From positions 1-62,185 of the forward strand of contig JAXHLS010000004.1 of NCBI GenBank assembly GCA_034522055.1: 62,185 nucleotides of DNA. The letters are read 5' to 3'. The first letter of the stretch is position 1. Every line of letters starts with the position of its first letter. This DNA comes from Gammaproteobacteria bacterium (lineage in GTDB: Bacteria; Pseudomonadota; Gammaproteobacteria; JAABTG01). Shown here one piece after another: positions 8,165 to 21,794 of the stretch. A model generated the notes under the pieces. The model did no database searches. It was not told the DNA's origin and saw only the letters and a list, made by a program, of their open reading frames with translations. The position numbers and the translations under genes were made by a program.

Positions 8165-8186
8165 ATTTGGGGTCAGAGTAAAAACT
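8165..8186 (+). repeat. left 22-bp inverted repeat of RAYT unit (REP-like)
   Basis: This is an exact 22-base reverse complement of 8944-8965, with core GGGGTCAGAGTAAAAA. It lies at the 3' side of the transposase gene and ends one base before the last codons. The GGGGTCAGA core recurs near 25918, 38800 and 40091. Confidence 0.9.
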
Positions 8187-8187
8187 A

Positions 8188-8883
8188 TTACCGACGCGCG
8201 CGCCTTGTCTTCGGCCCTCGCTTGAGGGGGATCATCCTCCGGCCGCTGAGCCGCTCAATTTCATCTCTGAACCTATCGTTCCCAAGGGCCATCCCGCTAT
8301 TCGTGGCGTCCCGGATCGCTTTAGTAACCGCCGGCTCCAACTCGCTGGGGAACAAACGCCGGTAGGTATCGGCCCGCTCCGCCACGGTTGTGCCGAGCGT
8401 CTGGTAGGCCGGGTGAGGCGTCCACAGCTTGGCCGGATGTCCAAGAGCGTTAGCACGATAGCTGGACCAGGAGTAATCCTCCGGAGTCGCCACCATTCCA
8501 GCACGTACCGGGTTTAACTCAATGTACCGCTGGCAGACCAGCAGATATGAATCGGTCTCAACGACGCATGACTTGTAGCGCCCCTCCCACAGCGTCCCCG
8601 TCCTTTGATTGGCGTGGTTGAAGTACCGTACGTATTGACGGCCGAGCGTCTGCATCAGGCGGGGCACTCCATCGGCGGACACGGGGGTCACCAGCAGGTG
8701 CACGTGGTTTGTCATGAAGACCCAGGCATGAATGGCCACGGTATTCTTTGCCGCATACTCCTCGAGCCAGCGTGCATAGGCGGCAACGTCTTTCTCCGAG
8801 GCGAAGCATGCCTGCCGGTTGTTGCCGCGCTGGATGATGTGAAGGGGAATGCCTGGAATACAAACCCTCGGTAACCTTGCCAT
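8188..8883 (-). CDS. REP-associated tyrosine transposase (RAYT, Y1/HUH type)
   Basis: This 231-aa protein begins MARLPRVCIPGIPLHIIQRG, the characteristic RAYT start. It contains the HUH metal-binding motif in FMTNHVHLLVTP and the catalytic-tyrosine region near LMQTLGRQYVRYFN, then GTLWEGRYKSC, RYIELNPVRAGMV and YSWSSYRANALG. RAYTs cut and join single-stranded DNA at REP sequences. The gene is bracketed by a perfect 22-bp inverted repeat (8165-8186 and 8944-8965), so this is a self-contained REP-RAYT unit. It looks intact. A C-terminal basic tail (KRGPKTRRARR) is present. Confidence 0.95.
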   Translation of the reverse strand: MARLPRVCIPGIPLHIIQRGNNRQACFASEKDVAAYARWLEEYAAKNTVAIHAWVFMTNHVHLLVTPVSADGVPRLMQTLGRQYVRYFNHANQRTGTLWEGRYKSCVVETDSYLLVCQRYIELNPVRAGMVATPEDYSWSSYRANALGHPAKLWTPHPAYQTLGTTVAERADTYRRLFPSELEPAVTKAIRDATNSGMALGNDRFRDEIERLSGRRMIPLKRGPKTRRARR

Positions 8884-8943
8884 CTCTCGTCCCTGAAAAT
8901 TTGCGTGCCCCTTCTGTTTATCAGGACTCTCAGTGCGCCGGCA

Positions 8944-8965
8944 AGTTTTTACTCTGACCCCAAAT
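8944..8965 (-). repeat. right 22-bp inverted repeat of RAYT unit
   Basis: Exact reverse complement of 8165-8186. It lies about 60 bases upstream of the transposase start and may double as the transposase binding site. Confidence 0.9.
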
Positions 8966-9271
8966 ATGCTGAATAGGCGGCTGCCCCAGGAGGGTGCCTG
9001 GCTTCGGCCGGGCAGGGCCTTTTTGGGGCAACGCCGCCGGCCGCTCCTGCGGCGCTGGCGGGCCCTGCGGTCGATCATGTGCTGGTGCGATTATTGCTTC
9101 CAGGATGTTCAGCTCCCCCTTCGAGGGCGAATCGTGGCGCTGGATGACTCACGCCTGTAGACAATGGGATTGGTGCCGAAAACAGCTTCATGACCGGTAG
9201 ATAATGGAATACAAATATGCTTATGATCCTCACTCTCCCAAGGGCCCATCCTGGTCGTCCGCAAGGATCCT
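8966..9271. other. intergenic region before the MBX-like operon
   Basis: No gene was seen. The region should carry the promoter of the long operon starting at 9272. The part near 9180-9240 is AT-richer, but no clear promoter elements were assigned. Confidence 0.4.
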
Positions 9272-9775
9272 ATGACTGATCGAAGCAAGTCCCTGGTGGT
9301 GGTGTTCGCCGCCGCCCTGCTGCTGTGGTTGTTGCTGACGGCCAGCCTGGCGTGGCAGGAGTTGCTGGTGGGCGTCGTGGTGGCCCTCACCGTCGCCCTG
9401 GCGACCCGGGACCCGGGCGGTTTCTTCGCCGCCCTGCGCTTCGAGCCCCGGGCCCCGCTCCACGCCGTGCGTTTCCTGGGCACCTTCCTGGTGGCCCTGG
9501 TGCGGGCCAATGTGGACATGGCGCGCCGCGTCCTCACGCCGGCCCTGCCTATCCGCCCGGCGGTGGTGAAGGTGCGCACCGGGCTGGCATCGGAACTCGG
9601 CCGCCTGCTGCTGGCCAACAGCATCACCCTGACCCCCGGCACCCTGGCGGTGGACCTGGAGGGGGACGAACTGCTGGTCCATTGGGTGGATTGCCCCCCG
9701 GGGACCGACATGGAGGGCGCCACCCGCCACATCGCCGCGGGTTTCGAGCGCCACCTGGCGGGGTTCGTGCGATGA
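9272..9775 (+). CDS. mrpE: MrpE/MnhE-like antiporter subunit (MbxA position)
   Basis: This 167-aa protein has two N-terminal membrane segments and the MnhE signature LLANSITLTPGTLAVDLEGD. Subunit E belongs to the sodium/proton antiporter module (MrpEFG) found both in Mrp antiporters and in the membrane arms of MBH/MBX-type complexes. It is the first gene of a tightly packed operon; its stop overlaps the next start (ATGA). Because hydrogenase-like subunits follow, it is read here as part of a respiratory complex and not of a free Mrp antiporter. Confidence 0.92.
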   Translation: MTDRSKSLVVVFAAALLLWLLLTASLAWQELLVGVVVALTVALATRDPGGFFAALRFEPRAPLHAVRFLGTFLVALVRANVDMARRVLTPALPIRPAVVKVRTGLASELGRLLLANSITLTPGTLAVDLEGDELLVHWVDCPPGTDMEGATRHIAAGFERHLAGFVR

Positions 9776-10032
9776 CCGAGCCCATGGTCCTGCTGCCCCT
9801 GCTGCTGGTGGGCGCCGGGGTGCTGCTGGCCCTGGGGCGGCTGGTGGCGGGCCCTACGGCGCCCGATCGCGTGGTGGCCGCGGACACCATCGCCGTCATC
9901 ACTACGGCGGCCATCGTGCTACTGGCGGCGGCCTTCGACAGCGCCCTGTACCTGGACGTGGCCCTGGTCTACGGCGTCCTCGCCTTCGTCGGGGTGGTGG
10001 CCATCGCCCGTGCCATCGAGGGCGGGCCATGA
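9772..10032 (+). CDS. mrpF: MrpF/MnhF-like antiporter subunit (MbxB position)
   Basis: This 86-aa protein has three predicted membrane segments and the MrpF-family stretch RLVAGPTAPDRVVAADTIAV. It is a small membrane subunit of the sodium/proton translocation module. It overlaps the genes on both sides by four bases, indicating translational coupling. Length and order (E, F, G) match Mrp and MBX operons. Confidence 0.93.
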   Translation: MTEPMVLLPLLLVGAGVLLALGRLVAGPTAPDRVVAADTIAVITTAAIVLLAAAFDSALYLDVALVYGVLAFVGVVAIARAIEGGP

Positions 10033-10334
10033 TGACCTTCCTGGGCAACCTGTTGCTGCTGGTGGGGGGACTGTTCTGCCTGCTGGGGGCCCTCGGCCTG
10101 GTGCGCATGCCGGACGTCTACAACCGCATCCAGGCGGGCACCAAGGCAGTCACCATGGGCTCCCTGTGCATACTCGCCGGGGTGGGCCTCCTGTATCCCA
10201 CCTGGTGGCCCAAGCTGGTGGCAGTGGCCCTGTTCATCCTCCTCACCAACCCCGTGGGCTCGTCGGCCATCGCCCGGGCCCTCTACCGTTCGGGGATCCG
10301 GCCCTGGCACAAGGCCGGGGAGGAGGAATCCTGA
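10029..10334 (+). CDS. mrpG: MrpG/MnhG-like antiporter subunit (MbxC position)
   Basis: This 101-aa membrane protein has the MnhG signature GALGLVRMPDVYNRIQAGTK. It completes the E-F-G set of the ion-translocating module. Its start overlaps the MrpF stop and its stop overlaps the next start. Nothing unusual was seen. Confidence 0.93.
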   Translation: MMTFLGNLLLLVGGLFCLLGALGLVRMPDVYNRIQAGTKAVTMGSLCILAGVGLLYPTWWPKLVAVALFILLTNPVGSSAIARALYRSGIRPWHKAGEEES

Positions 10335-10606
10335 TGTTCTGGCTGCTCCTCGGCATCGTCGTCCTCATGCTCACCAGCGCGGTGCTGGTGCTGGTGCTGG
10401 ACAACCTCCTGGCGGCCCTGGCGGCCAGTTCCGTGGTGTCCCTGGCCCTGGCCCTGGTGTTCGTGATCCTGCGGGCCCCCGACGTGGCCATGACCGAGGC
10501 GGCGGTGGGGGCGGGGCTCAGCGCCCTCATCCTCGTGCTGGCCCTGCGGCGGCTGGGGCTGGTGGCGGTGGGCGGCACCCGGGACGGGGAGGGCGGCGAT
10601 GCCTAG
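10334..10606 (+). CDS. DUF4040 / MbhD-like membrane subunit (MbxD position)
   Basis: This 90-aa protein has three membrane segments and the DUF4040 signature RAPDVAMTEAAVGAGL. In Mrp antiporters this domain is the C-terminal part of MrpA; in MBH/MBX complexes it is the separate subunit D. Its occurrence as a free gene here is one of the features that separates this operon from an ordinary mrp operon. AGGAGG lies 8 bases before its ATG. It overlaps the next gene by 8 bases. Confidence 0.88.
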   Translation: MFWLLLGIVVLMLTSAVLVLVLDNLLAALAASSVVSLALALVFVILRAPDVAMTEAAVGAGLSALILVLALRRLGLVAVGGTRDGEGGDA

Positions 10607-11288
10607 GTTCGCCACCGTGCTGTTCCTGGCGGGTTTCGCCTTCCTGCTGTTCACCTTGACCCTGACCCTCGGCTTCGGCGAGCCGCCCATGCGCGCGGGG
10701 CAGGGGGTGCTGGACCAGGCGGTGGCGGGCACCGGTGCCGCCAACGCGGTGAGCGCGGTGTTGCTGGGCTTCCGCGGCCTCGACACCCTGGGGGAACTGA
10801 GCATCCTGTTCGCCGCCGCCACGGCCGGGGGGCTGGTGCTGGGCCGCCGCCGGCCGCCCGCGGAGGGGGCCCCCGCGGGCACCATCCTCCAGGCGGGCAC
10901 GCGGCTGCTGTTCCCTCTCATGCTGGTGGTGGGCTTCTACATCGTCCTCCACGGCCACCTGACGCCGGGCGGCGGCTTCCAGGGCGGCGTCATCCTGGCC
11001 GCCGCCTTCTTCCTGCCGCTGCTCGCGGGCACCGGCGCGGGCCCGGACCATGGCCTGTTGCGGGTGGTGGAGGGTCTCGCCGGCACCGCCTTTATCCTCA
11101 TCGGCCTCGCCGCCCTGTGGGGCGGCGGCGTGTTCCTGGAGCCCCTGCTGGTGCGCCCGGAGGCCCTCCACGAACTCTTTTCCGCCGGCACCCTGCCCCT
11201 GTTGTATCTCGCCGTGGGCCTCAAGGTGGGGGCGGAGCTGGCGGGGCTGCTGGCCCACATGGCCCATGCCGGCGGGGGGGAGGCCTGA
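10599..11288 (+). CDS. mrpB: MbhE-MnhB fused membrane subunit (MbxF position)
   Basis: This 229-aa protein has two recognisable parts. Residues about 1-90 resemble the MbhE type (NAVSAVLLGFRGLDTLGE). The remainder is an MnhB domain with the signature GHLTPGGGFQGGVILA. Both are membrane subunits of the sodium/proton module. One gene for the two domains fits the MBX arrangement. The start at 10599 overlaps the DUF4040 stop, and its stop overlaps the MrpC start by one base. Confidence 0.88.
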   Translation: MPRFATVLFLAGFAFLLFTLTLTLGFGEPPMRAGQGVLDQAVAGTGAANAVSAVLLGFRGLDTLGELSILFAAATAGGLVLGRRRPPAEGAPAGTILQAGTRLLFPLMLVVGFYIVLHGHLTPGGGFQGGVILAAAFFLPLLAGTGAGPDHGLLRVVEGLAGTAFILIGLAALWGGGVFLEPLLVRPEALHELFSAGTLPLLYLAVGLKVGAELAGLLAHMAHAGGGEA

Positions 11289-11749
11289 TGGACGCCTACA
11301 TCGGCCTGGTGCTGTTCGTGGGGGCCGCCGGCCTCATCGCCATCGGGGTGGTGGGGATCCTGCTGTCCAACCATCTCTTTCGCATGGTGCTGGCCCTGGT
11401 CATCGCCGAGGCCGGGGCCAACCTCATGCTGGTGCTGGCGGGTTACCGCTGGGATGCGGTGGCGCCCATTCTCCAACCGGGGGTCGCCGCCCAGCCCATG
11501 GTGGACCCCATTCCCCAGGCCCTGGTGCTCACCGCCATCGTCATCGGCGTGGGGGTGCAGGCCCTGGCCCTGACCATGGTCATCCGCATCCGCGAGACCT
11601 ACGGCACCCTGGACATGGCCGAGGTGCGGGCCCGCATGGAGGCGGACCTGGCGGCGGCGTCCGGCGTCGAGGTCACGGGGAGTTCCGAACGCCCGGCGGG
11701 CGGGCGTCCCCTGCCGGGCCCGGACGCCCTGCCGGAGGTGCCGCGATGA
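11288..11749 (+). CDS. mrpC: MrpC/NuoK-like antiporter subunit (MbxG position)
   Basis: This 153-aa protein is homologous to NuoK and MrpC. It has three membrane segments and the typical IGVVGILLSNHLFRMVLAL and LVLTAIVIGVGVQALAL stretches. The hydrophilic C-terminal tail of about 45 residues is longer than in many NuoK proteins but is common in MrpC. It lies between MnhB and MrpD as expected and is coupled to both by overlapping start and stop codons. Confidence 0.92.
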   Translation: MDAYIGLVLFVGAAGLIAIGVVGILLSNHLFRMVLALVIAEAGANLMLVLAGYRWDAVAPILQPGVAAQPMVDPIPQALVLTAIVIGVGVQALALTMVIRIRETYGTLDMAEVRARMEADLAAASGVEVTGSSERPAGGRPLPGPDALPEVPR

Positions 11750-13209
11750 TGACCTACGCCGTGGCCCTGCCCCTGGTGGCAGCCTTCCTGCTGCCCATAC
11801 TACACGGCGCCGCGCGCTGGCTGGGGGCCGTGGCGGGGCCCGCGGCCCTGGTGGCGGTGCTGCTGGTGGTGTACCAGAGCTGGCAGCCGGCGGCGTTGCC
11901 CTTCGCCATCGATCTCGGCGGCTTCGCACCGCCCTGGGGCATCACCTTCTACGTCGATAGCCTGGCCCTGCTGTTCTGCGCCGCCGTGGCCCTCATGACC
12001 CTGCTGCTGTGGCCGCGGGACGAGGGGGAGGGCGACACCGATGCCCTGGTGCGCCGGCGCGTTCTGACCCTGCTGCTGGCCGCCGCCGCCGCCGGCCTCG
12101 CCCTGTCGGGGGACCTGTTCAACATCTACGTCTTCTACGAACTGGCGGCGGTGGCCTCCTACGGCCTCGCCGCCGAGCGCGGCACCCCCGCCGCCTACGC
12201 CGCCGCCTTCCGTTACCTGATGTTGAGTGCCCTGGGCTCCGTCATCGCGCTATTCGGCATCGCCATCGTCTACTTCCAGACCGGCACCCTCAACCTCGCC
12301 CATCTCGCTCTCGTCGCCGAAGAACTCCAGGGGCCGGCGGGGATCGCCGCCTTCCTGTGCCTGCTGGTGGGCTTCGGCGTCAAGGCGGAGCTGTTCCCGG
12401 TGAACGCCTGGGTGCCCGAGGTGTACGGCGTCACCACCCGGCGCACCGCCGGCCTGCTGGCGGGCGTGGTATCGAAGCTGGCGGTGCTGGTGCTGGTACG
12501 CCTGCTGGTGCTGGTGTTCCCCCAGGAGGAGTTGCGGGACGTGCTGTTGGTGCTGGGGGTCCTCGGCATGGTGGGGGGCGAGCTGGCGGCCTGGAAGGCG
12601 CGGGACATGGCCCGCATGCTGGCCTTCTCCTCCATCGGCCAGTTGGGCCTGGTGTTCGTGGCCTTTTCCCTGCCGGGCGATGCCGGGCTGGTGGCGGGCA
12701 TCATCGTGGCCGTCCATCACCTGGTGCTGAAGCCCGGCCTGTTCATGCTGGCCGGACAGTGGGGCGGCGGCCTCCAGGGCCTGGTGGGGGCGGCGCGGCG
12801 CGCGCCCCTGGCGGGCCTGTTGTTCGTGCTCTTCGCCCTGTCCCTGGTGGGGCTGCCGCCGTTGCCCGGGTTCTGGGCCAAGTTCCTGGTGCTCACGGGG
12901 CTGGCCGGGGAGGCGGGCGGGCTGGCGTGGCTGGCCATCGTGGCCATCATCGTGGCCACGGTGCTGGAGGTCAGCTACCTGTTCCGGCTGGCGGGGCGCC
13001 TGTACAGCCGTGGCGATGAAGGCGCCCCGGCGGGTGCCGCCGGCGGTGGGTACCCCGTCACCGCGGGGTTGCTCGGGGCCCTGCTGGTAGCTGCGGTGGT
13101 GTTCGCCGTGCCCCTGTGGGAGGTGGTGCAGGACATGGCGGCCGAGGCCGGCGACGTGGCCCTCTACGTGCGCACGGTGGGCCCGATGACTGGGGGCGGG
13201 GCGCCATGA
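11746..13209 (+). CDS. mrpD: MrpD/NuoN-like antiporter subunit (MbxH position)
   Basis: This 487-aa polytopic membrane protein is of the NuoL/M/N antiporter family. Family landmarks are FNIYVFYELAAVASYGL (the TM5 glutamate), VKAELFPVNAWVPEVYG (the TM7 lysine) and VAVHHLVLKPGLFMLAG. It is one of two large antiporter subunits in the operon. Two adjacent ATG codons (11746, 11749) are possible; the first overlaps the MrpC stop. It would form an ion channel in the membrane arm. Confidence 0.92.
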   Translation: MMTYAVALPLVAAFLLPILHGAARWLGAVAGPAALVAVLLVVYQSWQPAALPFAIDLGGFAPPWGITFYVDSLALLFCAAVALMTLLLWPRDEGEGDTDALVRRRVLTLLLAAAAAGLALSGDLFNIYVFYELAAVASYGLAAERGTPAAYAAAFRYLMLSALGSVIALFGIAIVYFQTGTLNLAHLALVAEELQGPAGIAAFLCLLVGFGVKAELFPVNAWVPEVYGVTTRRTAGLLAGVVSKLAVLVLVRLLVLVFPQEELRDVLLVLGVLGMVGGELAAWKARDMARMLAFSSIGQLGLVFVAFSLPGDAGLVAGIIVAVHHLVLKPGLFMLAGQWGGGLQGLVGAARRAPLAGLLFVLFALSLVGLPPLPGFWAKFLVLTGLAGEAGGLAWLAIVAIIVATVLEVSYLFRLAGRLYSRGDEGAPAGAAGGGYPVTAGLLGALLVAAVVFAVPLWEVVQDMAAEAGDVALYVRTVGPMTGGGAP

Positions 13210-15071
13210 CCCATCTCGACCTGCTGCTGCTGGTGGCCTTTCTCAATCTGCCTCTGGCCTGGTGGCTGGCGGGCGGCGTCCGGCGCCGGCATTTCCTGGC
13301 CCTTCCCTACGGCCTGATGTTGGGCATGCTGCTCTATCTGGACCCCGGGGCCACATGGCCCAGCGGCGTGTCCTGGGTATTCCTGGGCCAGCCCCTGTCG
13401 TGGCGCCTCGATGGCCTCGGCTGGTTCTTCGCCCTGCCCACCATCGGTGCCGCCCTGGCCGCCGCCGCCTATGCCTCGGGGGAGTGGGGCGAGCGCTTCG
13501 TGGCCGCCGGCGGCAGCTCGGGCTGGCTGCATCTGGCCCTGGCCGCCAATGTCTTCGCCATGCTGGTGCTGCTGTCGGCGGGGGATCTGCTGACCCTGTT
13601 CATCGGCTGGGAGCTGGTGAGCTGGGTGGGCCTGCCCCTGATGGTGCTGGCGGGCGGCGCCGCGGTGGGGGCGGGGATCCGTTACATCACCTACGCCATG
13701 GGCGGTGGCATGGCGGTGCTCCTGGGGGTGGTCCTGGTCGACGCCTGGTCGGGCTCTCTGTTGCCGGCGGATTTCATGGCGGTGCTGCCCACCCTGGCTC
13801 CCTGGCAGGTGGGGTTGCTGGTGGCCCTGTTCTTCGGCGGCTTCGGCGTCAAGATGGCCATGCTGCCCTTCCACCTGTGGCAGGCCCCGGCCTACGGCCT
13901 CAGCGTGGGGCCGGCGGCGGCCTTCCTGGGGGCCATCTCATCGCGCATGGGGCTGTTCGCCATGGCCCTGGTGCTGGTGAAGTTCATCACCCTGGAACGC
14001 CTGGTGGATCTGAGCATTATCCCGGGGCTGCTGGACAGCCGCGACGTGCTGGCCTGGATCGCCGCCTTCACCATCATCCTCCCCACCTATACGGCCCTGA
14101 AGCAGAATGACGCCCGCCTGCTGCTGGTCTGGCACGGCATCGGCCAGGGGGGCTACATGGTGCTGGGGCTGGTGATGGGGGATGCCTTCGGGACGGCGGG
14201 CGGGCTGCTCCACGTCTTCAACTACGCCACCAACCAGGCGGTGCTGCTGCTGGCGGTGTTCGCGGTGATGCACCGCACGGGTACGGCGGACCTCAACCGC
14301 ATGGGCGGCCTCATCGTGCGCATGCCCCTGTCCTTCCTGGCCCTGCTCATCGGCATCATCGGCTTGGCCGGCCTGCCGCCCATGAACGGCTTCGTGTCCA
14401 AGTGGCTGGTGTACCGCTCCCTGGTATTGGAGGGCGAACCGCTGCTGTTCCTGGCCGCCGTCATCGGCACCCTGGGCACCATCCTCAGCGTCTACAAGCT
14501 CATCCACAACATGTTCCTCGGTCAGCTGCGGGTGGAGCACGAGGACATCCGCGAGGCCCCGTGGAGCATGACCGGGCCCATGCTGGTGCTGTGCGGCATC
14601 ATCATCGTCACCGGCACCATGCCGGGCCTGGTGCTGGGGGTGGTGGCCGATGCCCAGCAGGCCATCGGCCTGGCGGCGCCGGACTACCACCTGGGGGGCG
14701 TCACCTCGCCGGCGGGGGGCCTCGATATGCTGTGGCTGAACGGTGTCATCATGGCCGGCTTCGCCGTGGGTGCGGTGCTGTTCTACGGTTTCGGCGGCCG
14801 CAGCAAGCGGGTCCACCAGCTGGACAACTACGCCGGCGGCCATTTCCTCACCGCCGACGTGCGCTACCAGTACAGTGACAACTTCTATCCTGGCCTCATG
14901 CACCACATCGGCGGCTGGTATCGCTCGAGCTTCCAGTGGCTGGAGGGGGCGGTGATCTCCGTCGTAGACCTCCTGGCTACCGCCCTCCAGGGCTTCTATC
15001 GCCAAGCCCAGCCGGCGGCCTGGGTGCTGTTCACCATTACCCTCGGTTTCGCCTGGGCGGTCCTGCCATGA
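13206..15071 (+). CDS. second NuoL/MrpA-like antiporter subunit (MbxH' position)
   Basis: This 621-aa polytopic protein has the antiporter landmarks FIGWELVSWVGLPLMVL and FGVKMAMLPFHLWQAPAYG, followed by LAGLPPMNGFVSKWLVY. The C-terminal extension after about residue 480 ends with a further membrane helix (VLFTITLGFAWAVL). Two large antiporter-like subunits in tandem are the hallmark of MBX/MBS, whereas MBH has one. It overlaps MrpD and the NuoH-like gene by four bases each. Confidence 0.9.
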   Translation: MTHLDLLLLVAFLNLPLAWWLAGGVRRRHFLALPYGLMLGMLLYLDPGATWPSGVSWVFLGQPLSWRLDGLGWFFALPTIGAALAAAAYASGEWGERFVAAGGSSGWLHLALAANVFAMLVLLSAGDLLTLFIGWELVSWVGLPLMVLAGGAAVGAGIRYITYAMGGGMAVLLGVVLVDAWSGSLLPADFMAVLPTLAPWQVGLLVALFFGGFGVKMAMLPFHLWQAPAYGLSVGPAAAFLGAISSRMGLFAMALVLVKFITLERLVDLSIIPGLLDSRDVLAWIAAFTIILPTYTALKQNDARLLLVWHGIGQGGYMVLGLVMGDAFGTAGGLLHVFNYATNQAVLLLAVFAVMHRTGTADLNRMGGLIVRMPLSFLALLIGIIGLAGLPPMNGFVSKWLVYRSLVLEGEPLLFLAAVIGTLGTILSVYKLIHNMFLGQLRVEHEDIREAPWSMTGPMLVLCGIIIVTGTMPGLVLGVVADAQQAIGLAAPDYHLGGVTSPAGGLDMLWLNGVIMAGFAVGAVLFYGFGGRSKRVHQLDNYAGGHFLTADVRYQYSDNFYPGLMHHIGGWYRSSFQWLEGAVISVVDLLATALQGFYRQAQPAAWVLFTITLGFAWAVLP

Positions 15072-15967
15072 GTGTCCTGGAACTGCTGCTTGAACTGGTG
15101 CTGATGCCCATCGTGGCCTTCGTCATCGGGCTCTTCATGGTGTTGATGATGCGCAAAATCGGTGCCCGCCTGCAGCGCCGGGTGGGGCCGCCCGTGTTCC
15201 AGCCCCTGTACGACATCGTCAAGCTCTACGGCAAGCGCACCCAGGTCTCCCACGGCCTCATGCACGATATCGGCATTATCATGGCGGTGGGGGGCTACGT
15301 GGCGGCCGAGACCCTGCTGCCGATGCCGGGCATGAACGGCATCGCCGAGAAGGGCGGGCTCATCGCCCTGCTCTACGTCATCATGATCCCCTCCCTCGGC
15401 CTCGCCCTCGGCGTCGGGCAGTGCGCCAACCCCAACGGCTCCATCGGTATCTCCCGGGCCCTGACCGCCATGCTGGCCTACGACATCCCCTTCGTCATCG
15501 TCATCTTCGGCGTGGCCTGGCACTTCGGCACCACCAACCTGGTGGACATCATCGCCCTCCAGCAGGCCGGCGGCATCGCCACCTGGGGCGCGGTGGAGAT
15601 GCCCCTGCTGGCCATCGCCGGCCTGTTCGGCATGCAGGCCATGCTGGGCAAGCAGCCCTTCGAGATCTACGTCGCGCCGGCGGAGATCGCCACCGGGCCC
15701 ATGGTGGAGATGGGCGGCAAGTACCTGGGCGGTCTGTTCGTGATGCAGTCCTTCCAGCTCTACACCGCCGCGGTGATCTACGTCACTCTGTTCCTGGGGG
15801 GCGGCGAGAACTGGCTGTTCTTTCTGATAAAGATATTCGCCGTGGTGGCCATCCCCATGTCCATCGCCTTCCTGTTTCCGCGCTATCGCACCGAAAACCT
15901 TGTGGGATTGCTTTGGAAATGGCCGGTGATGGCCGGGTTGATAGGGGTGGCGTTGTTGATGTACTGA
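15068..15967 (+). CDS. NuoH/HycD-like membrane-anchor subunit (MbxM position)
   Basis: This 299-aa membrane protein is of the complex I subunit 1 family (NuoH, HycD, MbhM). Landmarks are MMRKIGARLQRRVGPPVFQP near the N-terminus and KQPFEIYVAPAEIATGPMVE in the loop that contacts the hydrophilic arm. It joins the antiporter arm to the electron-transfer arm. The start at 15068 overlaps the previous stop; a longer in-frame opening inside the NuoL-like gene is rejected. After this gene the tight packing stops and a 240-bp repeat-bearing gap follows. Confidence 0.93.
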   Translation: MSVLELLLELVLMPIVAFVIGLFMVLMMRKIGARLQRRVGPPVFQPLYDIVKLYGKRTQVSHGLMHDIGIIMAVGGYVAAETLLPMPGMNGIAEKGGLIALLYVIMIPSLGLALGVGQCANPNGSIGISRALTAMLAYDIPFVIVIFGVAWHFGTTNLVDIIALQQAGGIATWGAVEMPLLAIAGLFGMQAMLGKQPFEIYVAPAEIATGPMVEMGGKYLGGLFVMQSFQLYTAAVIYVTLFLGGGENWLFFLIKIFAVVAIPMSIAFLFPRYRTENLVGLLWKWPVMAGLIGVALLMY

Positions 15968-15989
15968 GGGCCCTTTGCCGGCCAATCCC

Positions 15990-16193
15990 AATTTTGAATT
16001 TTGAATTTTGAATTATGAATTCCGGTGTTCGCTACGCTCACGTTCTTCTTGATCAAGAGCGGTTTTTTTCGCTGGACCCACGGGGAACCTCGGGCCCCCG
16101 GTGGGTTCGAAAGATGGGGTATGTATCAATGAGACGACATGCGAGCGCAGCGAGCGCATCAATTCAAAATTCAAAATTAAGAATTCAAAATTG
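15990..16193. repeat. intergenic repeat unit bounded by inverted heptamer arrays
   Basis: The left edge (15990-16021) is an (AATTTTG)n array and the right edge (16160-16193) is its inverse (CAAAATT)n. Between them lies about 140 bp that begins TCCGGTGTTCGCTACGCTCA, the same 20 bases found at 17580-17599 in a second unit. No gene was seen. The two arms could pair into a long AT-rich hairpin in the mRNA. Confidence 0.85.
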
Positions 16194-16207
16194 GCGGTGA
16201 GCAAACG

Positions 16208-16912
16208 ATGAAGGAAATCCAACAGATCCCGGTAGCCCAGGCGTCCCGAACTAATCCCTTCGCCCGGGTCTTCGACGAGCTCACCGCCTTCTGTCGGTCG
16301 CGTTCCATGTTCATGCTCCATTACTGTACGGGGTGTGGGGCCATCGAGTTGCCGCCGGCCATGACCTCGCGCTTCGACATGGAGCGCCTAGGGATCCAGC
16401 CCATGGTGAGTCCCCGCCAGGCGGATATTCTGCTCATCACGGGTTATGTCTCGGTGAAGACCCTGAAGCGGGTGATCCTCACCTACGAGCAGATGGCCTC
16501 ACCCAAGTACGTCATCGGCATCTGCTCCTGCACCGTCAATGGCGGCATGTACTGGCAGAGCTACGCCACCGCGAAGAAGCTCAACGACTACATGCCCGTG
16601 GACATGTACATCGCCGGCTGCATGCCGCGGCCCGAGGCGGTCATCGAGGGCCTGCGGGGCCTGATGGAGCGGGTGCGCACGGGGGAGGCGAACGGTTGGG
16701 AGGATTACTACCGGCGCTACGATTACTACCTGGGCCACCAGCAGCGCCTGTTCGGCGAGGCCTGGCAGACCCCCACCAACGTTATCCAGGAGGCCGAGCA
16801 TTACGGCCTCGCGGGGCCGGAGACCGAGGGCGAGCACACCGCCTTGCTGCGCCAGCACCAGCAGCCCCTGGAACCCCTGGAGATGCGCATCGGCTTGAAG
16901 GAGCGGGTATGA
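16208..16912 (+). CDS. NuoB-like small subunit with [4Fe-4S] (N2-type) motif (MbxJ position)
   Basis: This 234-aa soluble subunit is of the complex I 20-kDa / hydrogenase small-subunit family. The four ligands of the proximal (N2-type) [4Fe-4S] cluster are visible: the CxxC pair in YCTGCGAIE, a cysteine in GICSC and the last in AGCMPRPEAV. It would hand electrons to the active site formed with the NuoD-like subunit. The C-terminal 70 residues, rich in Y, Q and E, extend beyond the core fold. It lies 15 bp after a heptamer-repeat unit. Confidence 0.93.
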   Translation: MKEIQQIPVAQASRTNPFARVFDELTAFCRSRSMFMLHYCTGCGAIELPPAMTSRFDMERLGIQPMVSPRQADILLITGYVSVKTLKRVILTYEQMASPKYVIGICSCTVNGGMYWQSYATAKKLNDYMPVDMYIAGCMPRPEAVIEGLRGLMERVRTGEANGWEDYYRRYDYYLGHQQRLFGEAWQTPTNVIQEAEHYGLAGPETEGEHTALLRQHQQPLEPLEMRIGLKERV

Positions 16913-16940
16913 ATCCAGCCGGCGCGAGGGGTATGCGGAG

Positions 16941-17519
16941 GTGGCGGCCGTGAGCGGGGGCGAGGGATCCAAGGCCCTCGGGCCCATCCTGCGGGACGTG
17001 AAGGGCGCGCACATCACCAGCACCCGCCCACGGCGCTCTCGGGTGGACCTGCCGGCGGATGCCCTGCCGGCCCTGCTGGAGCTCCTCAAGGGGCGGGCCG
17101 GCTTCGTCCACCTGTCGGCCATCAGCTGCGTGGACTGGATGGACGACGGGCAGTTCGAGCTGGTCTACCACGTGTGGTCCTACGAGATGTCCATGATGGT
17201 GTCCGCCCACATCCGCATCCCCCGGGAGCCGGGGGTGTACCTGTCGGTCTACGACCTCTACCACCCGGCCGCCTTCTTCGAGCGGGACATTCACGAGATG
17301 TACGGCCTCTATTTCGAGGGCAGCCCCGACATGGAGAAGTTCATCCTCACCGAGTGGGACGGCCCGCCCCCCATGCGCAAGGATTTCGACTCCGAGGCCT
17401 GGGTCAACGACCACTTCGACTGGCAGGACTATAGGCCAGAATGGCTTCAGGAGCTTGAGGAGGACGGAGGGGGGATCGCGATTCGGCCGGATGAGCAGCG
17501 GTTCAGTCGCCGGAAGTAA
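16941..17519 (+). CDS. NuoC-like subunit (MbxK position)
   Basis: This 192-aa protein is of the complex I 30-kDa subunit family. The family signature is FFERDIHEMYGLYFEGSPD followed by LTEWDGPPPMRKDF. It is a structural subunit of the hydrophilic arm beside NuoB and NuoD. The chosen start is GTG at 16941; no ATG in this frame gives a better N-terminus. It sits 28 bp after the NuoB-like gene and is followed by a 446-bp repeat-rich gap. Confidence 0.9.
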   Translation: MAAVSGGEGSKALGPILRDVKGAHITSTRPRRSRVDLPADALPALLELLKGRAGFVHLSAISCVDWMDDGQFELVYHVWSYEMSMMVSAHIRIPREPGVYLSVYDLYHPAAFFERDIHEMYGLYFEGSPDMEKFILTEWDGPPPMRKDFDSEAWVNDHFDWQDYRPEWLQELEEDGGGIAIRPDEQRFSRRK

Positions 17520-17534
17520 CCTGCCTGAGCGCTC

Positions 17535-17943
17535 CAATTTTGAATTTTGAATTTTGAATTTTGAATTTTGAATTATGAAATCCGGTGTTCGCTACGCTCA
17601 CCGTTTTATTGAGGAAAAAGAATGATCTCGCCAAGGCGCCAAGTTCGCCAAGAATGCGGTCACGGACCTGGATGGTTTTTGCACCTTGGCGAAGGATTGA
17701 CCTTTTCCACGACATATTCCCGTGTCGCGCCCGCGCATCGATTCGAAGTTCAGAGTTCAAGATCCAAATCTTACAATCTTGTTGAGGGGAAAGTGATCTG
17801 GCCAGGGTGCCAAGTTCGCCAAGAAGGCATTTACGGCTCTTGGCGCTCTTTGCGTCTTGGCGAGAGATTTCCTTTCTCCACGTCAGAGTCGCGCGCGAAG
17901 CGCGCACATCAATTCAAAATTCAAAATTCAAAATTCAAAATTG
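17535..17943. repeat. second heptamer-bounded repeat unit, with CGCCAAG repeats inside
   Basis: The left edge (17535-17577) is (AATTTTG)n and the right edge (17910-17943) is (CAAAATT)n. Inside are two copies of a motif family built on CCAAGTTCGCCAAGAA and its inverse CTTGGCGA. The unit sits between the NuoC-like and NuoD-like genes. Short open frames crossing it are not credible genes. Confidence 0.85.
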
Positions 17944-17965
17944 CCGACGCCCAGGAGGCCTCCTG

Positions 17966-19108
17966 ATGCGCCCGGAGAATTACGAGGCCAAGCGGCAGCC
18001 GCCGAGCAACGAATACGAACTCAACTTCGGCCCCAACCATCCGGGCATCGAAGGCAACTATGCCCTCAAGGTGAAGCTCCATGGCGATGAGGTGCTGGCG
18101 GCGCGGGCCGACGGCGGTTACCTCCATCGGGGCTTCGAGAAGCTCATGGAGCAGCGGCTGTGGATCCAGAACATCGCCCTGGTGCCGCGGATCTGCGTGC
18201 CCGATCCCGCGCCCATGGAGGTGTGCTACGCCATGGCGGTGGAGGAGTTGTGCGGCCTCGAGGTGCCGGAGCGAGCCCAGTGGCTCAGGGTGCTGCTGCT
18301 AGAGATGTCGCGGGTGGCCGCGCATCTCTTCACCTTCGGCGGCCATGCCGCCACGACAGGCATGTACAGCCCCATGTTCTGGGGGGTGGCGGACCGGGAC
18401 CTGGTGCTCGACCTGTTCGAGGAACTCACGGGCGGGCGTGTATACAGCATCTACAACATCCCCGGTGGTGTGCGTCGGGACGTGCCCGATGGGTTTCTCG
18501 AGCGCCTCGTCCATACCCTGGATTATCTCGATTCCCGGCTGCCCGATTACGACCACCTGTTCTTCACCAACCAGGTGTTCGTGACCCGCTCCCGGGGCGT
18601 GGGCGTCCTCAACCAGCAGCAGGCCCTGGAGTGGGGTGTCACGGGGCCGAACCTGCGGGCCACCGGCCTGGCCTTCGACGTGCGCCGCGACGACCCCTAT
18701 CTGGTGTACGACCAGATCCCCTTCGAGGTGGCCACGGAGCACGCGGGGGATGCCTGGGCGCGTACCCTGGTGCGCCGCCGCGAACTGGTGCAGAGCATCC
18801 GGATCCTGCGCCACGTGGCCGAGCGCCTCCCCGGTGTGCCGGGCCCCATCCGCGCGCCCATCCCCAACCCCCTGGCCTGGAAGGTGCCCGCAGGTGATGC
18901 CTACGTGCGGGTGGAATCTTCGAAAGGGGAACTTGCCTGGTACGTGGTGTCCGACGGCGGCGTCAAGCCCTACCGCACCCACGTGCGCGGGCCGTCGTCC
19001 ATGCATGCAGTACAAGTGCTGGAACGGCTGGTGACCGGCTGCCGGTTGGAGGACGTAGCTCAGATCATGTTTTCTTTGGACGCATGTCCTCCGGAAGTGG
19101 ACCGGTGA
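17966..19108 (+). CDS. NuoD-like large subunit with remnant [NiFe] motifs (MbxL position)
   Basis: This 380-aa protein is of the NuoD / hydrogenase large-subunit family, recognised from NFGPNHPGIEG, GYLHRGFEKLMEQR and the C-terminal SLDACPPEVDR. Catalytic group 4 [NiFe]-hydrogenases have two CxxC pairs. Here the first motif is RICVPD with one cysteine (C77), and the last is DACPPE with one cysteine (C374). A [NiFe] site is therefore not expected. Loss of part of the ligand set is what distinguishes MBX/MBS-type and related complexes from hydrogenases. AGGAGG at 17953 fixes the ATG at 17966. The true electron acceptor or donor at this site is unknown. Confidence 0.92.
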   Translation: MRPENYEAKRQPPSNEYELNFGPNHPGIEGNYALKVKLHGDEVLAARADGGYLHRGFEKLMEQRLWIQNIALVPRICVPDPAPMEVCYAMAVEELCGLEVPERAQWLRVLLLEMSRVAAHLFTFGGHAATTGMYSPMFWGVADRDLVLDLFEELTGGRVYSIYNIPGGVRRDVPDGFLERLVHTLDYLDSRLPDYDHLFFTNQVFVTRSRGVGVLNQQQALEWGVTGPNLRATGLAFDVRRDDPYLVYDQIPFEVATEHAGDAWARTLVRRRELVQSIRILRHVAERLPGVPGPIRAPIPNPLAWKVPAGDAYVRVESSKGELAWYVVSDGGVKPYRTHVRGPSSMHAVQVLERLVTGCRLEDVAQIMFSLDACPPEVDR

Positions 19109-19389
19109 ACCGGCAGCCGGTCACCAGCCGTTCACCAGCCGTTCAATCTTGAACTTCGAATTTTGAATTGTGAGTTTTGAATTGGAACAGCAGGGAGTTG
19201 CTGGATGGACAGGGAGAATGTTGTCCGAGTTCGTTGAGATCGTAGGTTGGGGTGAGGAACGAACCCCAACGGATGTTTATCGGACACCGTTGCTCGAAAA
19301 CAATGCCGCACATTCCATCCGGCGGGATTGCGAAGAATTCCCCCGCTTGTTGACCTCCATCGTCAAGTCGACTCAAGAGAAGCAGTAAG
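19109..19389. repeat. repeat-bearing gap between NuoD-like and NuoI-like genes
   Basis: A degenerate heptamer array (19143-19186) opens the gap. GGTTGGGGTGAGGAACGAA with its inverted partner AACCCCAAC lies near 19235-19270. A 72-codon opening at 19170-19388 begins inside the repeat; its end vaguely resembles a small helical protein but is not credible alone. The matching CAAAATT array lies inside the next coding region. Confidence 0.6.
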
Positions 19390-21285
19390 ATGTCCAAGCC
19401 AATTCAAAATTCAAAATTCAAAATTCAAAATTCGGGCGAGCGGGCGCCGGATATTGACCCCAACACGAAGGGCTCGATCCTCAACCCCCTCCGTGCTCTT
19501 CAGTTCTTCGCCCGCGAGCCCGTAACCGTGCCTCTGGGCCCCCGCGTGGCCGCCATGCGCTACCGCGGCTTCCATATCAACGACTGGGAGGCGTGCATCG
19601 GCTGCTCCACCTGCCAGAAGGTGTGCGACAACGCGGCCATCACCATGGTGCGGGTGCCGGGCCTGCCCGAGGACCCCCTGAACGGGGTGCGCAACCTGCG
19701 CCCGGCCATCGACTATGGCCGCTGCTGCTGGTGCGCCCTGTGCGTGGACCTGTGCCCCACGGGCTCCATCCGCCTGTCCCGGGAGTACGTGCACACCTGC
19801 ACCGACGAGGAGCTGTCCAGCTACTTCATCCTGCCGGACCCCAAGGGGATCCATAACGAATATTACGGCGAGGGCTGGACCCAGACCGCCGAGAACGACC
19901 TCGTGGATCCCAACCGCCAGGCCATGGCCGAGCGGCCCGCCGCCGAGCGGGTGGACGACTTCAACGAGATCGTCGAAGGCTACGACCTCCAGCAGGCCAT
20001 CGTGGAGGCCTCGCGCTGCGTGCAGTGCGGCATGTGCCACGATGCCTGCCCGGCCCACATGAACGCGCCGGAGTACATCCGCGCCATCTGGCAGCAGGAC
20101 CTGGAGGAGGCCGTGCACCAGATCTACCGCACCAATCCCTTCGCCCACACCTGCGGGCGGGTGTGCACCCACCGCTGCGAGACCGCCTGTTCCATCGGCA
20201 AGCGCGGCGAGCCCGTGGCCATCCGCTGGCTGAAGCGCTTCGCCATGGACGCGGTGGGTGACGAGCGGGTGCGCTCCATCGTCGCCGAGCGTTTCCCGAA
20301 GCAGCCGGCCAGCGGTCGCTCCGTGGGTATCGTGGGGGCAGGGCCGTCGGGCCTCACAGCGGCCTTCGACCTGGCCCGCCACGGCCATAAGGTGGTGGTC
20401 TACGAGGGCCTGGAGAAGGCGGGCGGCATGGCGCGCTACGGCATCCCCGCCTACCGCATGCCTTACGATCGGCTGGACGCGGACATCGGCGTCATCGAGG
20501 CCATGGGGGTGGAGATCCGCTGCAACACCCGGGTGGGGCACGACGTGTCCATGGAGCAGTTGCGGGACGAGCATGATGCCGTGCTGCTGGGGTTGGGGCT
20601 GCAGTGGGCGCGCTCCACCCGCATCCCCGGCGCCGACCATCCCAACGTGTTGAAGGCGGTGGATTTGCTGCGGCGGGTGACGGAGGAGGACACCTTCGAG
20701 GTACCCCGCCGCGCCGTGATCATCGGCGGCGGCAACGTGGCCATGGATATCGCCCGCACCCTGGCCCGCCTGCAGCGAAAACAACACGGCGAGGTGGCCG
20801 TGACCCTGACGGCCCTGGAGGACCTGGAACATTTCCTGGCCGACGCCGACGAGGTGCGGGAGGCGGGCGAGGAGGGCATCGAGATCTTCGACGCCCGCGG
20901 CCCGCGCGAGTGCGTGGTGGAGGGGGATATGCTCCGCGGCCTGCGCACCTGGGGGGTGCGCTCCATCTTCGATGCCGACGGCCGCTTCGCACCGAGCTAC
21001 GACGAAGAGGACGAGCAGTTCCACCCCGGAGACATGATCGTGGAGGCCATCGGCCAGCAGGCGGACACCGCGCTGCTGGGGGAGGCCCTGACGGAGGCCC
21101 TGGAATGGCAGCGCGGGCGGCTCGCGGTGGACGACGCCTGCCGTACCTCCGAGCCCTGGCTGTGGGCGGCGGGGGACATGGTCCACGGCCCCGACGTCAT
21201 CCACGCCGTGGCCGACGGCCACCGCGCGGCGGCGGATATCCAGGGCCATTTCGAAGATATGGACCGCAGGAGCAAGGCATCATGA
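19390..21285 (+). CDS. NuoI-like ferredoxin subunit fused to NfnB/GltD-type NAD(P)H oxidoreductase (MbxN position)
   Basis: This 631-aa protein is a fusion. Residues about 55-120 are a two-cluster ferredoxin domain (CIGCSTCQKVCD and CCWCALCVDLCP) like NuoI/MbxN. Residues about 200-630 resemble GltD and NfnB: cysteine motifs CVQCGMCHDACP and CGRVCTHRCETAC, an FAD site GIVGAGPSGLTAA, an NAD(P) site VIIGGGNVAMDIA and the closing motif AAGDMVHGPDVIHAVADG. The fusion would let NAD(P)H and the iron-sulfur chain of the complex exchange electrons directly. The first 15 residues are encoded by a (CAAAATT)n array, giving NSKFKIQNS. The ATG at 19390 is the only good upstream start. Confidence 0.9.
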   Translation: MSKPIQNSKFKIQNSGERAPDIDPNTKGSILNPLRALQFFAREPVTVPLGPRVAAMRYRGFHINDWEACIGCSTCQKVCDNAAITMVRVPGLPEDPLNGVRNLRPAIDYGRCCWCALCVDLCPTGSIRLSREYVHTCTDEELSSYFILPDPKGIHNEYYGEGWTQTAENDLVDPNRQAMAERPAAERVDDFNEIVEGYDLQQAIVEASRCVQCGMCHDACPAHMNAPEYIRAIWQQDLEEAVHQIYRTNPFAHTCGRVCTHRCETACSIGKRGEPVAIRWLKRFAMDAVGDERVRSIVAERFPKQPASGRSVGIVGAGPSGLTAAFDLARHGHKVVVYEGLEKAGGMARYGIPAYRMPYDRLDADIGVIEAMGVEIRCNTRVGHDVSMEQLRDEHDAVLLGLGLQWARSTRIPGADHPNVLKAVDLLRRVTEEDTFEVPRRAVIIGGGNVAMDIARTLARLQRKQHGEVAVTLTALEDLEHFLADADEVREAGEEGIEIFDARGPRECVVEGDMLRGLRTWGVRSIFDADGRFAPSYDEEDEQFHPGDMIVEAIGQQADTALLGEALTEALEWQRGRLAVDDACRTSEPWLWAAGDMVHGPDVIHAVADGHRAAADIQGHFEDMDRRSKAS

Positions 21286-21794
21286 CTGAACACCGGGAAG
21301 GCCATCCCAGCGGTAAGGAGCGCCTGCAGGCGGCTCAGACCCTGGGCGAGATCCTCGCCACCGCGACCTCCTTCGAGGAGACGGCGCGGGACTTCTACCG
21401 CGACCTGGCGCCGCGGGTGAGCAAACGCATCCGCTGGCTAGTGGACGAGCTGGCGGAGGAGGAACAACGTCACTACGATCTATTCGGGGAACTCGCCACC
21501 CGCGACGACGTCCTGGAGCAGGTGGAGGAACGGGTGGCGACCCCGGCCGCCAACCGGCGCTTCTCCGACTGTGTGCAGTCGGCGGATCTGGGCGACAACC
21601 CCGACGACCAGGCCGTGTTGCAGTACGCCCTCTATCGCGAGCAGGCGGCCATGGACCAGTACACGGAGCTGGCCCAAAGCACGTCCCCGGGTCCCGTCCA
21701 GGAGCTGTTCCAGTTCCTCGCCAACGAAGAGACCCAGCACAAGGCGGAGCTGGAGAAGCTCTATTACGAGGTGGTCCACAGCGGGGGCGTGTAA
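21282..21794 (+). CDS. rubrerythrin-like ferritin-fold diiron protein
   Basis: This 170-aa protein has a four-helix ferritin-like core. The carboxylate and histidine ligands of a diiron centre are visible in FEETARDFY, EEEQRHYDLF, YREQAAMDQY and NEETQHKAELEKLY. There is no C-terminal rubredoxin domain. Such proteins usually reduce peroxide or handle iron. The ATG overlaps the stop of the fusion gene (ATGA), so it is co-translated with the complex and may protect its iron-sulfur clusters from oxidants (inference). It is the last gene of the operon. Confidence 0.88.
   Translation: MTEHREGHPSGKERLQAAQTLGEILATATSFEETARDFYRDLAPRVSKRIRWLVDELAEEEQRHYDLFGELATRDDVLEQVEERVATPAANRRFSDCVQSADLGDNPDDQAVLQYALYREQAAMDQYTELAQSTSPGPVQELFQFLANEETQHKAELEKLYYEVVHSGGV

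What the first reader, a model, noticed from the sequence alone, without database searches (positions are those of the whole stretch)
9272..21285. Bacterial operon with the gene order of the archaeal MBX/MBS respiratory complex
The sequence shows thirteen consecutive genes: MrpE, F, G, DUF4040, MbhE-MnhB, MrpC, MrpD, a second NuoL-like antiporter, then NuoH-, NuoB-, NuoC-, NuoD- and NuoI-like subunits. Known: this is the order A-B-C-D-F-G-H-H'-M-J-K-L-N described for Thermococcales MBX (MBS), a relative of complex I and group 4 hydrogenases that reduces sulfane sulfur. Two antiporter-type subunits and the lack of a hydrogenase site separate it from MBH. Inference: an ion-pumping ferredoxin- or NAD(P)H-linked complex in a gammaproteobacterium, with unknown terminal substrate.
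Basis: partly seen in the sequence, partly recalled or inferred. Interest (0 to 1): 0.88.

Follow-up and report, generated by a model that had tools for sequence, protein, structure and literature searches.

The report
NADH-linked MBX complex in sulfur oxidizers
Sulfur-oxidizing bacteria carry a genuine relative of the archaeal sulfur-reducing ion pump MBX/MBS with a built-in input module, probably for NADH, which makes it a good candidate for the unidentified enzyme that lets such bacteria breathe their stored sulfur when oxygen runs out.

Summary
Confirmed: thirteen intact genes (9272-21285) encode an MBX/MBS-type complex. The five main subunits compared with solved structures (L, J, M, H, H') match Pyrococcus furiosus MBS best. 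L groups with MBX (100/98), apart from complex I and [NiFe] hydrogenases. Diagnostic MBS residues are present: shortened CxxC motif of J, two of four NiFe cysteines of L, no quinone His/Tyr. (1) The last gene is a NuoI-GltD fusion, so a flavoprotein input module is attached; its motif (ALE, not YRR) predicts NAD(H). (2) A ferritin-like gene follows in 63 of 68 testable relatives. (3) It is patchily widespread in sulfur oxidizers: all 18 carriers among 369 genomes of the class have dsrA (two only a partial gene), against 119 of 369 overall. It is not unknown: Thermotoga MBX and an Endoriftia 'putative Mrp-Mbx' are in print. Best explanation: a Na+/H+-pumping NADH:polysulfide oxidoreductase for respiring stored sulfur under anoxia; activity and direction are unproven. 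Main puzzle: an extra cysteine (CxC) beside the catalytic cluster in the proteobacterial clade. Verdict: new variant of a known kind.

The parts
9272..9775 (+). MrpE-like subunit (MbxA position)
   Evidence: Pfam MNHE 1.4e-37
9772..10032 (+). MrpF-like subunit (MbxB position)
   Evidence: Pfam MrpF_PhaF 2.5e-17
10029..10334 (+). MrpG-like subunit (MbxC position)
   Evidence: Pfam PhaG_MnhG_YufB 1.2e-26
10334..10606 (+). MbhD/DUF4040 subunit (MbxD position)
   Evidence: Pfam MbhD 1.2e-17
10599..11288 (+). MbhE-MnhB subunit (MbxE position)
   Evidence: Pfam MnhB 1.4e-22 and MbhE 3.3e-7
11288..11749 (+). MrpC/NuoK-like subunit (MbxG position)
   Evidence: Pfam Oxidored_q2 2.3e-21
11749..13209 (+). 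MrpD-like antiporter subunit (MbxH)
   Evidence: best PDB match 6u8y_H (MBS) 8.6e-62, 33% identity
13206..15071 (+). second antiporter subunit (MbxH')
   Evidence: best PDB match 6u8y_X 6.8e-40; NCBIfam PRK08668 1.7e-102, under its cut-off
15068..15967 (+). NuoH-like membrane anchor (MbxM)
   Evidence: best PDB match 6u8y_M 5.3e-52
16208..16912 (+). NuoB-like subunit carrying the proximal cluster (MbxJ), with a clade-specific CxC
   Evidence: best PDB match 6u8y_J 9.4e-65; ligand columns
16941..17519 (+). NuoC-like subunit (MbxK); GTG start assumed
   Evidence: Pfam Complex1_30kDa 7.7e-26
17966..19108 (+). NuoD-like subunit (MbxL), RICVPDP...LDACPPEVDR, no NiFe site
   Evidence: best PDB match 6u8y_L 5.9e-118; tree; residue columns
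19390..21285 (+). NuoI-GltD/NfnB fusion (MbxN plus NAD(H)-type flavoprotein), 631 aa
   Evidence: NCBIfam PRK13984 1.8e-241, 802.6 bits, under its 946 cut-off; NuoI part best matches 6u8y_N among NuoI-type chains, 84.6 bits; model resembles NfnI 5jca_L, E 3.1e-41; ALE instead of YRR
21282..21794 (+). ferritin-like (rubrerythrin-family) protein
   Evidence: Pfam Rubrerythrin 2.1e-13; follows the fusion gene in 63 of 68 relatives with room for it

Best explanation
This is an MBX/MBS-family respiratory complex with its own NAD(H) input module, working mainly as an ion-pumping NADH:polysulfide (sulfane sulfur) oxidoreductase. Proposed path: NADH -> FAD of the fused GltD domain -> the cysteine-rich cluster sites of that domain -> two [4Fe-4S] clusters of the NuoI domain -> the site-differentiated proximal [4Fe-4S] cluster of MbxJ, where polysulfide from stored sulfur is cleaved. 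The redox step drives the two antiporter subunits and the Mrp-like Na+/H+ module. Its likely job is respiring stored sulfur when oxygen and nitrate are absent, with carbon reserves as electron source. Shown here: subunit set, family membership, conserved cluster ligands, fusion, NAD-type motif, overlap with dsrA. Inferred: activity, direction, pumping, and the role of the ferritin-like protein (perhaps protection against oxygen or peroxide).
For: MBS best match for L, J, M, H, H' and tree. The MBS paper (PMC7684303; [quoted passage not shown] that two of four NiFe cysteines remain (MbsL C85, C385); and that Nqo4 H38/Y87 and MbhL E21 are absent. The window has each of these sequence states (gap against a group 4 hydrogenase). 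Pump residues identical: MbsH 3 of 5, MbsH' 4 of 5, MbsM 2 of 5 plus one D-to-E. Cofactor: in DsrL/NfnB, YRR marks NADP(H) and its absence NAD(H) (PMC7596348, passages); 83 of 85 fusion rows lack YRR, the window reading ALE. Ecology: all 18 MBX carriers among 369 genomes have dsrA at E <= 1e-30, 119 of 369 overall. [quoted passage not shown] a fragmentary Endoriftia contig (L090) carries NuoD, fusion and ferritin-like genes. T. maritima mbxA rises 4.36-fold with S0 (PMC9431562, passages). Stored-sulfur respiration is reported in Beggiatoaceae (PMC4959497, passages).
Against: No activity or expression data for this organism. NADH to polysulfide has little driving force (about 50-60 mV from recalled textbook potentials), so little can be pumped and the reaction could run backwards. 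Proteobacterial J has an extra cysteine two residues before a cluster ligand (64 of 68 proteobacterial MBX J rows, some genomes twice); if it coordinates the cluster, the open iron site would be lost. MbsH H330, MbsM E104 and E193 are not conserved. In four Beggiatoa-type loci (L074, L077, L080, L092) no MBX gene lies directly beside the fusion gene, and the Thiomargarita genome of L077 gave only a Nuo-type NuoD, so the flavoprotein may have another partner there. PFOR, a marker of fermentation, is only weakly commoner in carriers (11 of 18 against 20 of 60, p 0.054). dsrA marks sulfur oxidation, not sulfur reduction. [quoted passage not shown] alba (PMC11507549, passages).
Confidence: 0.5

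Rival explanations
1. The same complex runs mainly in reverse: the ion gradient of a respiring or photosynthetic sulfur oxidizer pushes electrons from sulfide, persulfide or polysulfide to NAD+, a cheaper source of NADH than reverse complex I from quinol.
For: Small potential gap (recalled values); NAD-type motif; all 18 carriers have dsrA; a relative, DsrL-1A of A. [quoted passage not shown] 15 of 18 carriers have a RuBisCO-family gene.
Against: [quoted passage not shown] Known relatives are linked to sulfur reduction. RuBisCO is as common in dsrA genomes without MBX (55 of 60).
Confidence: 0.2
2. A ferredoxin:NAD+ oxidoreductase (Rnf-like or its reverse): ferredoxin exchanges electrons with the NuoI clusters and NAD(H) with the flavoprotein; the J-L-M chamber couples to pumping without a sulfur substrate.
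For: MBX was first proposed as a ferredoxin-NADPH oxidoreductase (PMC3035292, passages). PFOR lies at 245-3841 in the same window. Endoriftia rTCA co-expression fits a ferredoxin link. The extra J cysteine could close the catalytic iron site.
Against: Both donor and acceptor would sit on the N subunit, away from the coupling chamber, so pumping would be hard to drive (inference). P. furiosus MBS was later shown to reduce a polysulfide-type substrate (PMC7684303).
Confidence: 0.15
3. An ordinary or diverged NADH:quinone oxidoreductase (complex I-like).
For: NADH-type input; NCBIfam labels L and J as NuoD and NuoB.
Against: Quinone ligands H38/Y87 are E and V in the window, while both Nuo copies of the same genome keep H and Y; L falls outside Nuo; the membrane arm is Mrp-type.
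Confidence: 0.06
4. A [NiFe] group 4 hydrogenase.
For: Same superfamily and Mrp-type arm.
Against: The second cysteine of each NiFe motif is lost (D and E there); MbhL E21 is G; separate clade.
Confidence: 0.01

Closest known systems
MBS/MBX of Pyrococcus furiosus (PDB 6u8y)
   Same: Thirteen-subunit set; best match for L, J, M, H, H'; shortened J motif with C25/C28/C93/C123; MbsL C85 and C385 kept; no Nqo4 H38/Y87 or MbhL E21.
   Different: N subunit fused to an NAD-type GltD flavoprotein (MBS takes electrons from ferredoxin, PMC7684303); extra J cysteine at position 91; longer J C-terminus; ferritin-like gene added; dsrA-bearing genome.
MBX of Thermotogota (Fervidobacterium L091, Thermotogaceae L085; T. 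maritima MBX in PMC9431562)
   Same: Same order and same NuoI-GltD fusion in L085 and L091 (47 and 44% identity); L in the neighbouring clade, joined at 88/80.
   Different: No ferritin-like gene beside the fusion in L091 (L085 had no room), no CxC in J; the published T. maritima model names ferredoxin as donor (passages).
'Putative Mrp-Mbx' of Endoriftia (PMC11636981)
   Same: Presumably the same system: an Endoriftia contig (L090) carries NuoD pieces, the fusion and the ferritin-like gene.
   Different: The passages read call it related to S0 reduction in other organisms and list its function/direction as unknown; they do not mention the fusion, cofactor motif or cluster residues.
Dehydrogenase-linked MBX of Desulfurococcaceae (PMC3035292)
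   Same: MBX-type operon with a SudA/GltD-family gene, proposed to be linked to an NADPH dehydrogenase (passages).
   Different: There a separate sudA-like gene; here a fusion with an NAD-type motif. No sequence comparison was made here.
DsrL-1 (rDsr-linked NAD(H) oxidoreductase)
   Same: GltD/NfnB-type flavoprotein without YRR, tied to sulfur metabolism (PMC7596348, passages).
   Different: Partner of DsrAB, not part of an ion pump.
Respiratory complex I
   Same: NADH-type input, B-C-D-I-H core, antiporter-like subunits.
   Different: Different input flavoprotein, Mrp-type arm here, no quinone ligands here, different clade.

Membership tests
MBX/MBS | Thirteen-subunit gene set in MBX order with two antiporter-like subunits | tested here: met
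   order repeated in 37 of 46 relatives
MBX/MBS | L subunit clusters with MBS, not with Nuo or hydrogenase | tested here: met
   37 MBX rows one side of a branch at 100/98; the program warns of long branches, among them MBH, HycE, L002, 6u8y_L and 2fug_4
MBX/MBS | J: CxxC motif three residues shorter than MBH; C28, C93, C123 ligands | tested here: met
   the hydrogenase compared was a Thermotogota one (L156), not MBH itself
MBX/MBS | L: only the first cysteine of each NiFe pair kept (C85, C385) | tested here: met
MBX/MBS | Nqo4 H38/Y87 and MbhL E21 absent | tested here: met
   E, V and G in the window; Thermotogota MBX has H at the H38 column
MBX/MBS | One open (non-cysteine) iron site on the proximal cluster | tested here: inconclusive
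   MBS motif kept, but an extra cysteine at position 91 lies two residues before ligand C93; geometry not computed
MBX/MBS | Ferredoxin as electron donor | not testable with these tools
   The fused NAD-type flavoprotein argues for NADH but does not exclude ferredoxin
MBX/MBS | Sulfane sulfur (polysulfide) reductase activity | not testable with these tools
   needs biochemistry
Complex I (Nuo) | Quinone-binding His and Tyr in the D subunit | tested here: not met
Complex I (Nuo) | D subunit inside the Nuo clade | tested here: not met
Group 4 [NiFe] hydrogenase (MBH, Hyc) | Four cysteines binding NiFe | tested here: not met
   two of four remain
NCBIfam NF010590 / PRK13984 (NuoI-GltD fusion) | Score above the curated cut-off of 946 bits | tested here: not met
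   802.6 bits over 598 of 611 positions; same architecture, below the equivalog threshold
NADP(H)-type GltD/NfnB/DsrL-2 | YRR motif | tested here: not met
   ALE in the window; only 2 of 85 fusion rows have YRR (L110, L111)

The most novel reading that the evidence does not exclude
In sulfur-storing Proteobacteria MBX has become a reversible, NADH-linked polysulfide-cleaving pump whose catalytic cluster gained a nearby thiol (CxC, as in ferredoxin:thioredoxin reductase, recalled). In anoxia it respires stored sulfur; when energized it runs backwards and makes NADH from sulfide or polysulfide at the cost of the ion gradient, bypassing quinone and complex I. It would be a previously unrecognized reversible switch between sulfur storage and NADH.
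Probability: 0.15. Interest if true: 0.85.

Novelty: new variant of a known kind. Interest (0 to 1): 0.55.

Why it matters
Some sulfur-storing bacteria are reported to reduce their stored sulfur to sulfide when oxygen is gone (PMC4959497, passages), but the enzyme is open: a 2024 Beggiatoa paper calls the fate of intracellular sulfur unclear and finds no gene for the sulfur reductase it looked for in its strain (PMC11507549, passages). The MBX-NADH complex is a specific, testable candidate, present in records named Thiodiazotropha, Lamprocystis, Thiohalocapsa, tubeworm symbionts, Thiobacillus and, for the fusion gene, Thiomargarita. It also gives a natural comparison between MBS and complex I: the same kind of coupling arm, an NADH-type input, and presumably polysulfide instead of quinone at the end of the chain.

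Tried and rejected
Complex I and hydrogenase identities were rejected on tree and residues. An NADPH link was considered and rejected for this clade on the YRR motif; it stays likely for two members of a second subtype (L110, L111). A link to Calvin-cycle autotrophy gave nothing (RuBisCO family 15 of 18 carriers, 55 of 60 non-carriers). A link to PFOR was weak (11 of 18 against 20 of 60, p 0.054). The first impression that the same-genus genome G001 lacks the complex was wrong: a 91% identical J fragment lies at a contig edge. NF045663 in the own genome told nothing. Paper searches returned none; searches were mostly off topic. Two likely relevant reviews are not held. The structure model has mean pLDDT 73.3 and low confidence in much of the NuoI part, so only the flavoprotein part was used. 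A J model was not made because coordinates are not returned.
Full report
What is there. Window 9272-21285 holds thirteen intact genes on the + strand in the order MrpE, F, G, MbhD, MbhE-MnhB, MrpC, MrpD, a second antiporter, NuoH, NuoB, NuoC, NuoD, NuoI. The last gene continues as a GltD/NfnB-type flavoprotein: a 631-aa NuoI-GltD fusion whose best NCBIfam model is PRK13984 (802.6 bits, under the 946 cut-off). An AlphaFold model (mean pLDDT 73.3; much of the NuoI part is poor) matches chain L of P. furiosus NfnI best (5jca_L, E 3.1e-41). A rubrerythrin-family gene follows at 21282-21794.

Membership. Against solved structures by sequence, the best match of each of five main subunits is P. furiosus MBS: L 397 bits against 269 for complex I and 140 for MBH; J 222 against 117; M 180 against 75; H 213 against 129; H' 141 against 119. 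The NuoI part of the fusion matches the MBS N chain best among NuoI-type chains (84.6 bits). In a 46-row tree of the L subunit, 37 MBX rows including the window and 6u8y_L lie on one side of a branch at 100/98, Nuo rows at 98/96 and hydrogenase rows at 100/100; the program warns of long branches. The same genome has two other NuoD genes, which fall with Nuo. J and M were not treed.

Active-site residues. The MBS structure paper (PMC7684303; abstract and parts 1-3 of 6 of section 3 read) gives tests. The window J has C25, C28, C93 and C123 and the same short motif, while a Thermotogota group 4 hydrogenase J is three residues longer there. The window L keeps C85 and C385, has D and E at the other two NiFe positions, E and V for the quinone residues H38 and Y87, and G for MbhL E21; both Nuo copies in the same genome keep H and Y. 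Thermotogota MBX has H at the H38 column, so that column alone is not diagnostic. Pump residues are mostly kept in H and H' and partly in M; M E104 and E193 also vary in other bacterial relatives. One thing differs: 64 of 68 proteobacterial MBX J rows have an extra cysteine two residues before C93; the four others are L169 and the second subtype (L170, L171, L173). MBS and every Thermotogota row in the alignment read G there. Some genomes are counted twice, the window among them. By recall, such CxC pairs flank the cluster of ferredoxin:thioredoxin reductase. Whether the cysteine coordinates the cluster, serves as a redox thiol or does nothing is not known.

Cofactor. In NfnB and DsrL-2 a YRR motif binds the NADP phosphate; DsrL-1 enzymes without it prefer NAD(H) (PMC7596348, passages). 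At these columns 83 of 85 fusion rows lack YRR (66 read ALE, the window among them) and 2 have it (L110, L111). Of GltD-type rows without NuoI, 9 of 9 from L008-L016 have YRR, three others (L076, L174, L175) do not, and four truncated fusions read ALE (rows include overlapping loci). So NAD(H) is predicted.

Distribution. A genome scan kept 80 loci with the fusion (its patterns came from the window's own protein, so near relatives are favoured). Many of the named ones are sulfur oxidizers by recall (Thiodiazotropha, Lamprocystis, Thiohalocapsa, Sedimenticola, tubeworm symbionts, Thiomargarita, Parabeggiatoa, Thiobacillus, Parasulfuritortus); many others are unnamed gammaproteobacterial MAGs; two are Thermotogota, two Izimaplasma or Clostridiales MAGs. 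NuoD lies just upstream in 69 of 74 loci with room, the ferritin-like gene just downstream in 63 of 68 (L096, counted as a miss, has it, but its fusion hit is split), and all twelve other genes in order in 37 of 46. The nine misses: L028 (an apparent broken duplicate), L034, L043 and L061 (upstream genes not all within reach or not matched), L047 and L067 (no MbhD hit), L074 and L077 (no MBX genes just upstream), L079 (NuoH to NuoD not matched). In 369 genomes of the class, 17 have the fusion at E <= 1e-100 and 17 the J subunit at E <= 1e-45, 18 in the union; three of these (G221, G236, G266) are the second subtype and G001 is known from a J fragment only. All 18 have dsrA at E <= 1e-30 (G211 and G266 only a partial gene under the family cut-off), as do 119 of 369 overall (one-sided Fisher 5.6e-10, not corrected for kinship; the 18 come from 15 families). 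By the family's own cut-off the figures are 16 of 18 and 112 of 369. MBX is thus a patchy trait inside the dsr sulfur oxidizers of this class; Thermotogota carriers were not tested for dsrA.

Mechanism. I put first a NADH-driven, ion-pumping polysulfide reduction for stored-sulfur respiration. Supports: MBS chemistry; T. maritima mbxA up 4.36-fold with S0 (PMC9431562, passages); [quoted passage not shown] reported stored-sulfur respiration in Beggiatoaceae (PMC4959497, passages) with no enzyme settled, and one paper that finds the evidence in B. alba not conclusive (PMC11507549, passages). The driving force from NADH is small, so the reverse direction is a serious rival. Carriers are not richer in RuBisCO, and the PFOR excess is not significant. 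A PFOR gene at 245-3841 leaves the ferredoxin rival open.

What is new. Bacterial MBX is in print for Thermotoga and, as a 'putative Mrp-Mbx', for Endoriftia, and an MBX linked to a separate SudA-type NADPH dehydrogenase was proposed for Desulfurococcaceae in 2010 (PMC3035292, passages). In my searches (an open-licence library, listings and passages; two likely relevant reviews not held) I saw no description of the fused NAD-type module, the ferritin-like partner, the CxC cysteine or the overlap with dsrA in Proteobacteria. Hence: new variant of a known kind.

Noticed in passing
window 15975-16196, 17514-17943, 19137-19436: Arrays of the heptamer AATTTTG/CAAAATT sit in the gaps after NuoH, NuoC and NuoD and encode the QNSKFKIQNS start of the fusion protein. 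Of the 80 related loci 5 have such arrays (9 arrays): 4 at the NuoD-fusion junction, 2 at NuoH-NuoB, 2 between fusion and ferritin-like gene, 1 before the fusion in L089, whose left side is cut.
   Followed up: partly
window 245-3841: Single-chain pyruvate:ferredoxin oxidoreductase on the + strand, about 5.4 kb upstream of the operon.
   Followed up: partly
L109, L110, L111, L170, L171, L173 (genomes G221, G236, G266): A second, diverged MBX subtype in dsrA-bearing genomes: MbsJ C25 to G, MbsL C385 to Y, and a YRR (NADP-type) fusion in L110 and L111.
   Followed up: partly
L074, L077, L080, L092: In Thiotrichaceae, Thiomargarita and Parabeggiatoa loci the fusion and ferritin-like genes have no MBX genes directly beside them; L077 has an MBX-like NuoH about 7 kb downstream. 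The Parabeggiatoa genome has an MBX L gene elsewhere (L122), the Thiomargarita genome of L077 gave only a Nuo-type NuoD.
   Followed up: partly
L028 about 5379-8203: An apparent broken duplicate of NuoB-NuoC-NuoD pieces inside the operon of a tubeworm symbiont; assembly error not excluded.
   Followed up: no
L123 (genome G374): A second MBX-like L protein without the cysteines (RINVIEP...YIVAPEIDR) in a MAG that also has a fusion-type MBX.
   Followed up: no
window 8188-9078 (-), 23478-24506, 27390-28790, 31266-32708 (-), 34944-36680: Mobile-element-like and related genes around the operon: Y1 transposase, ParA-like ATPase, DDE transposase, integrase core, group II intron reverse transcriptase.
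   Followed up: no
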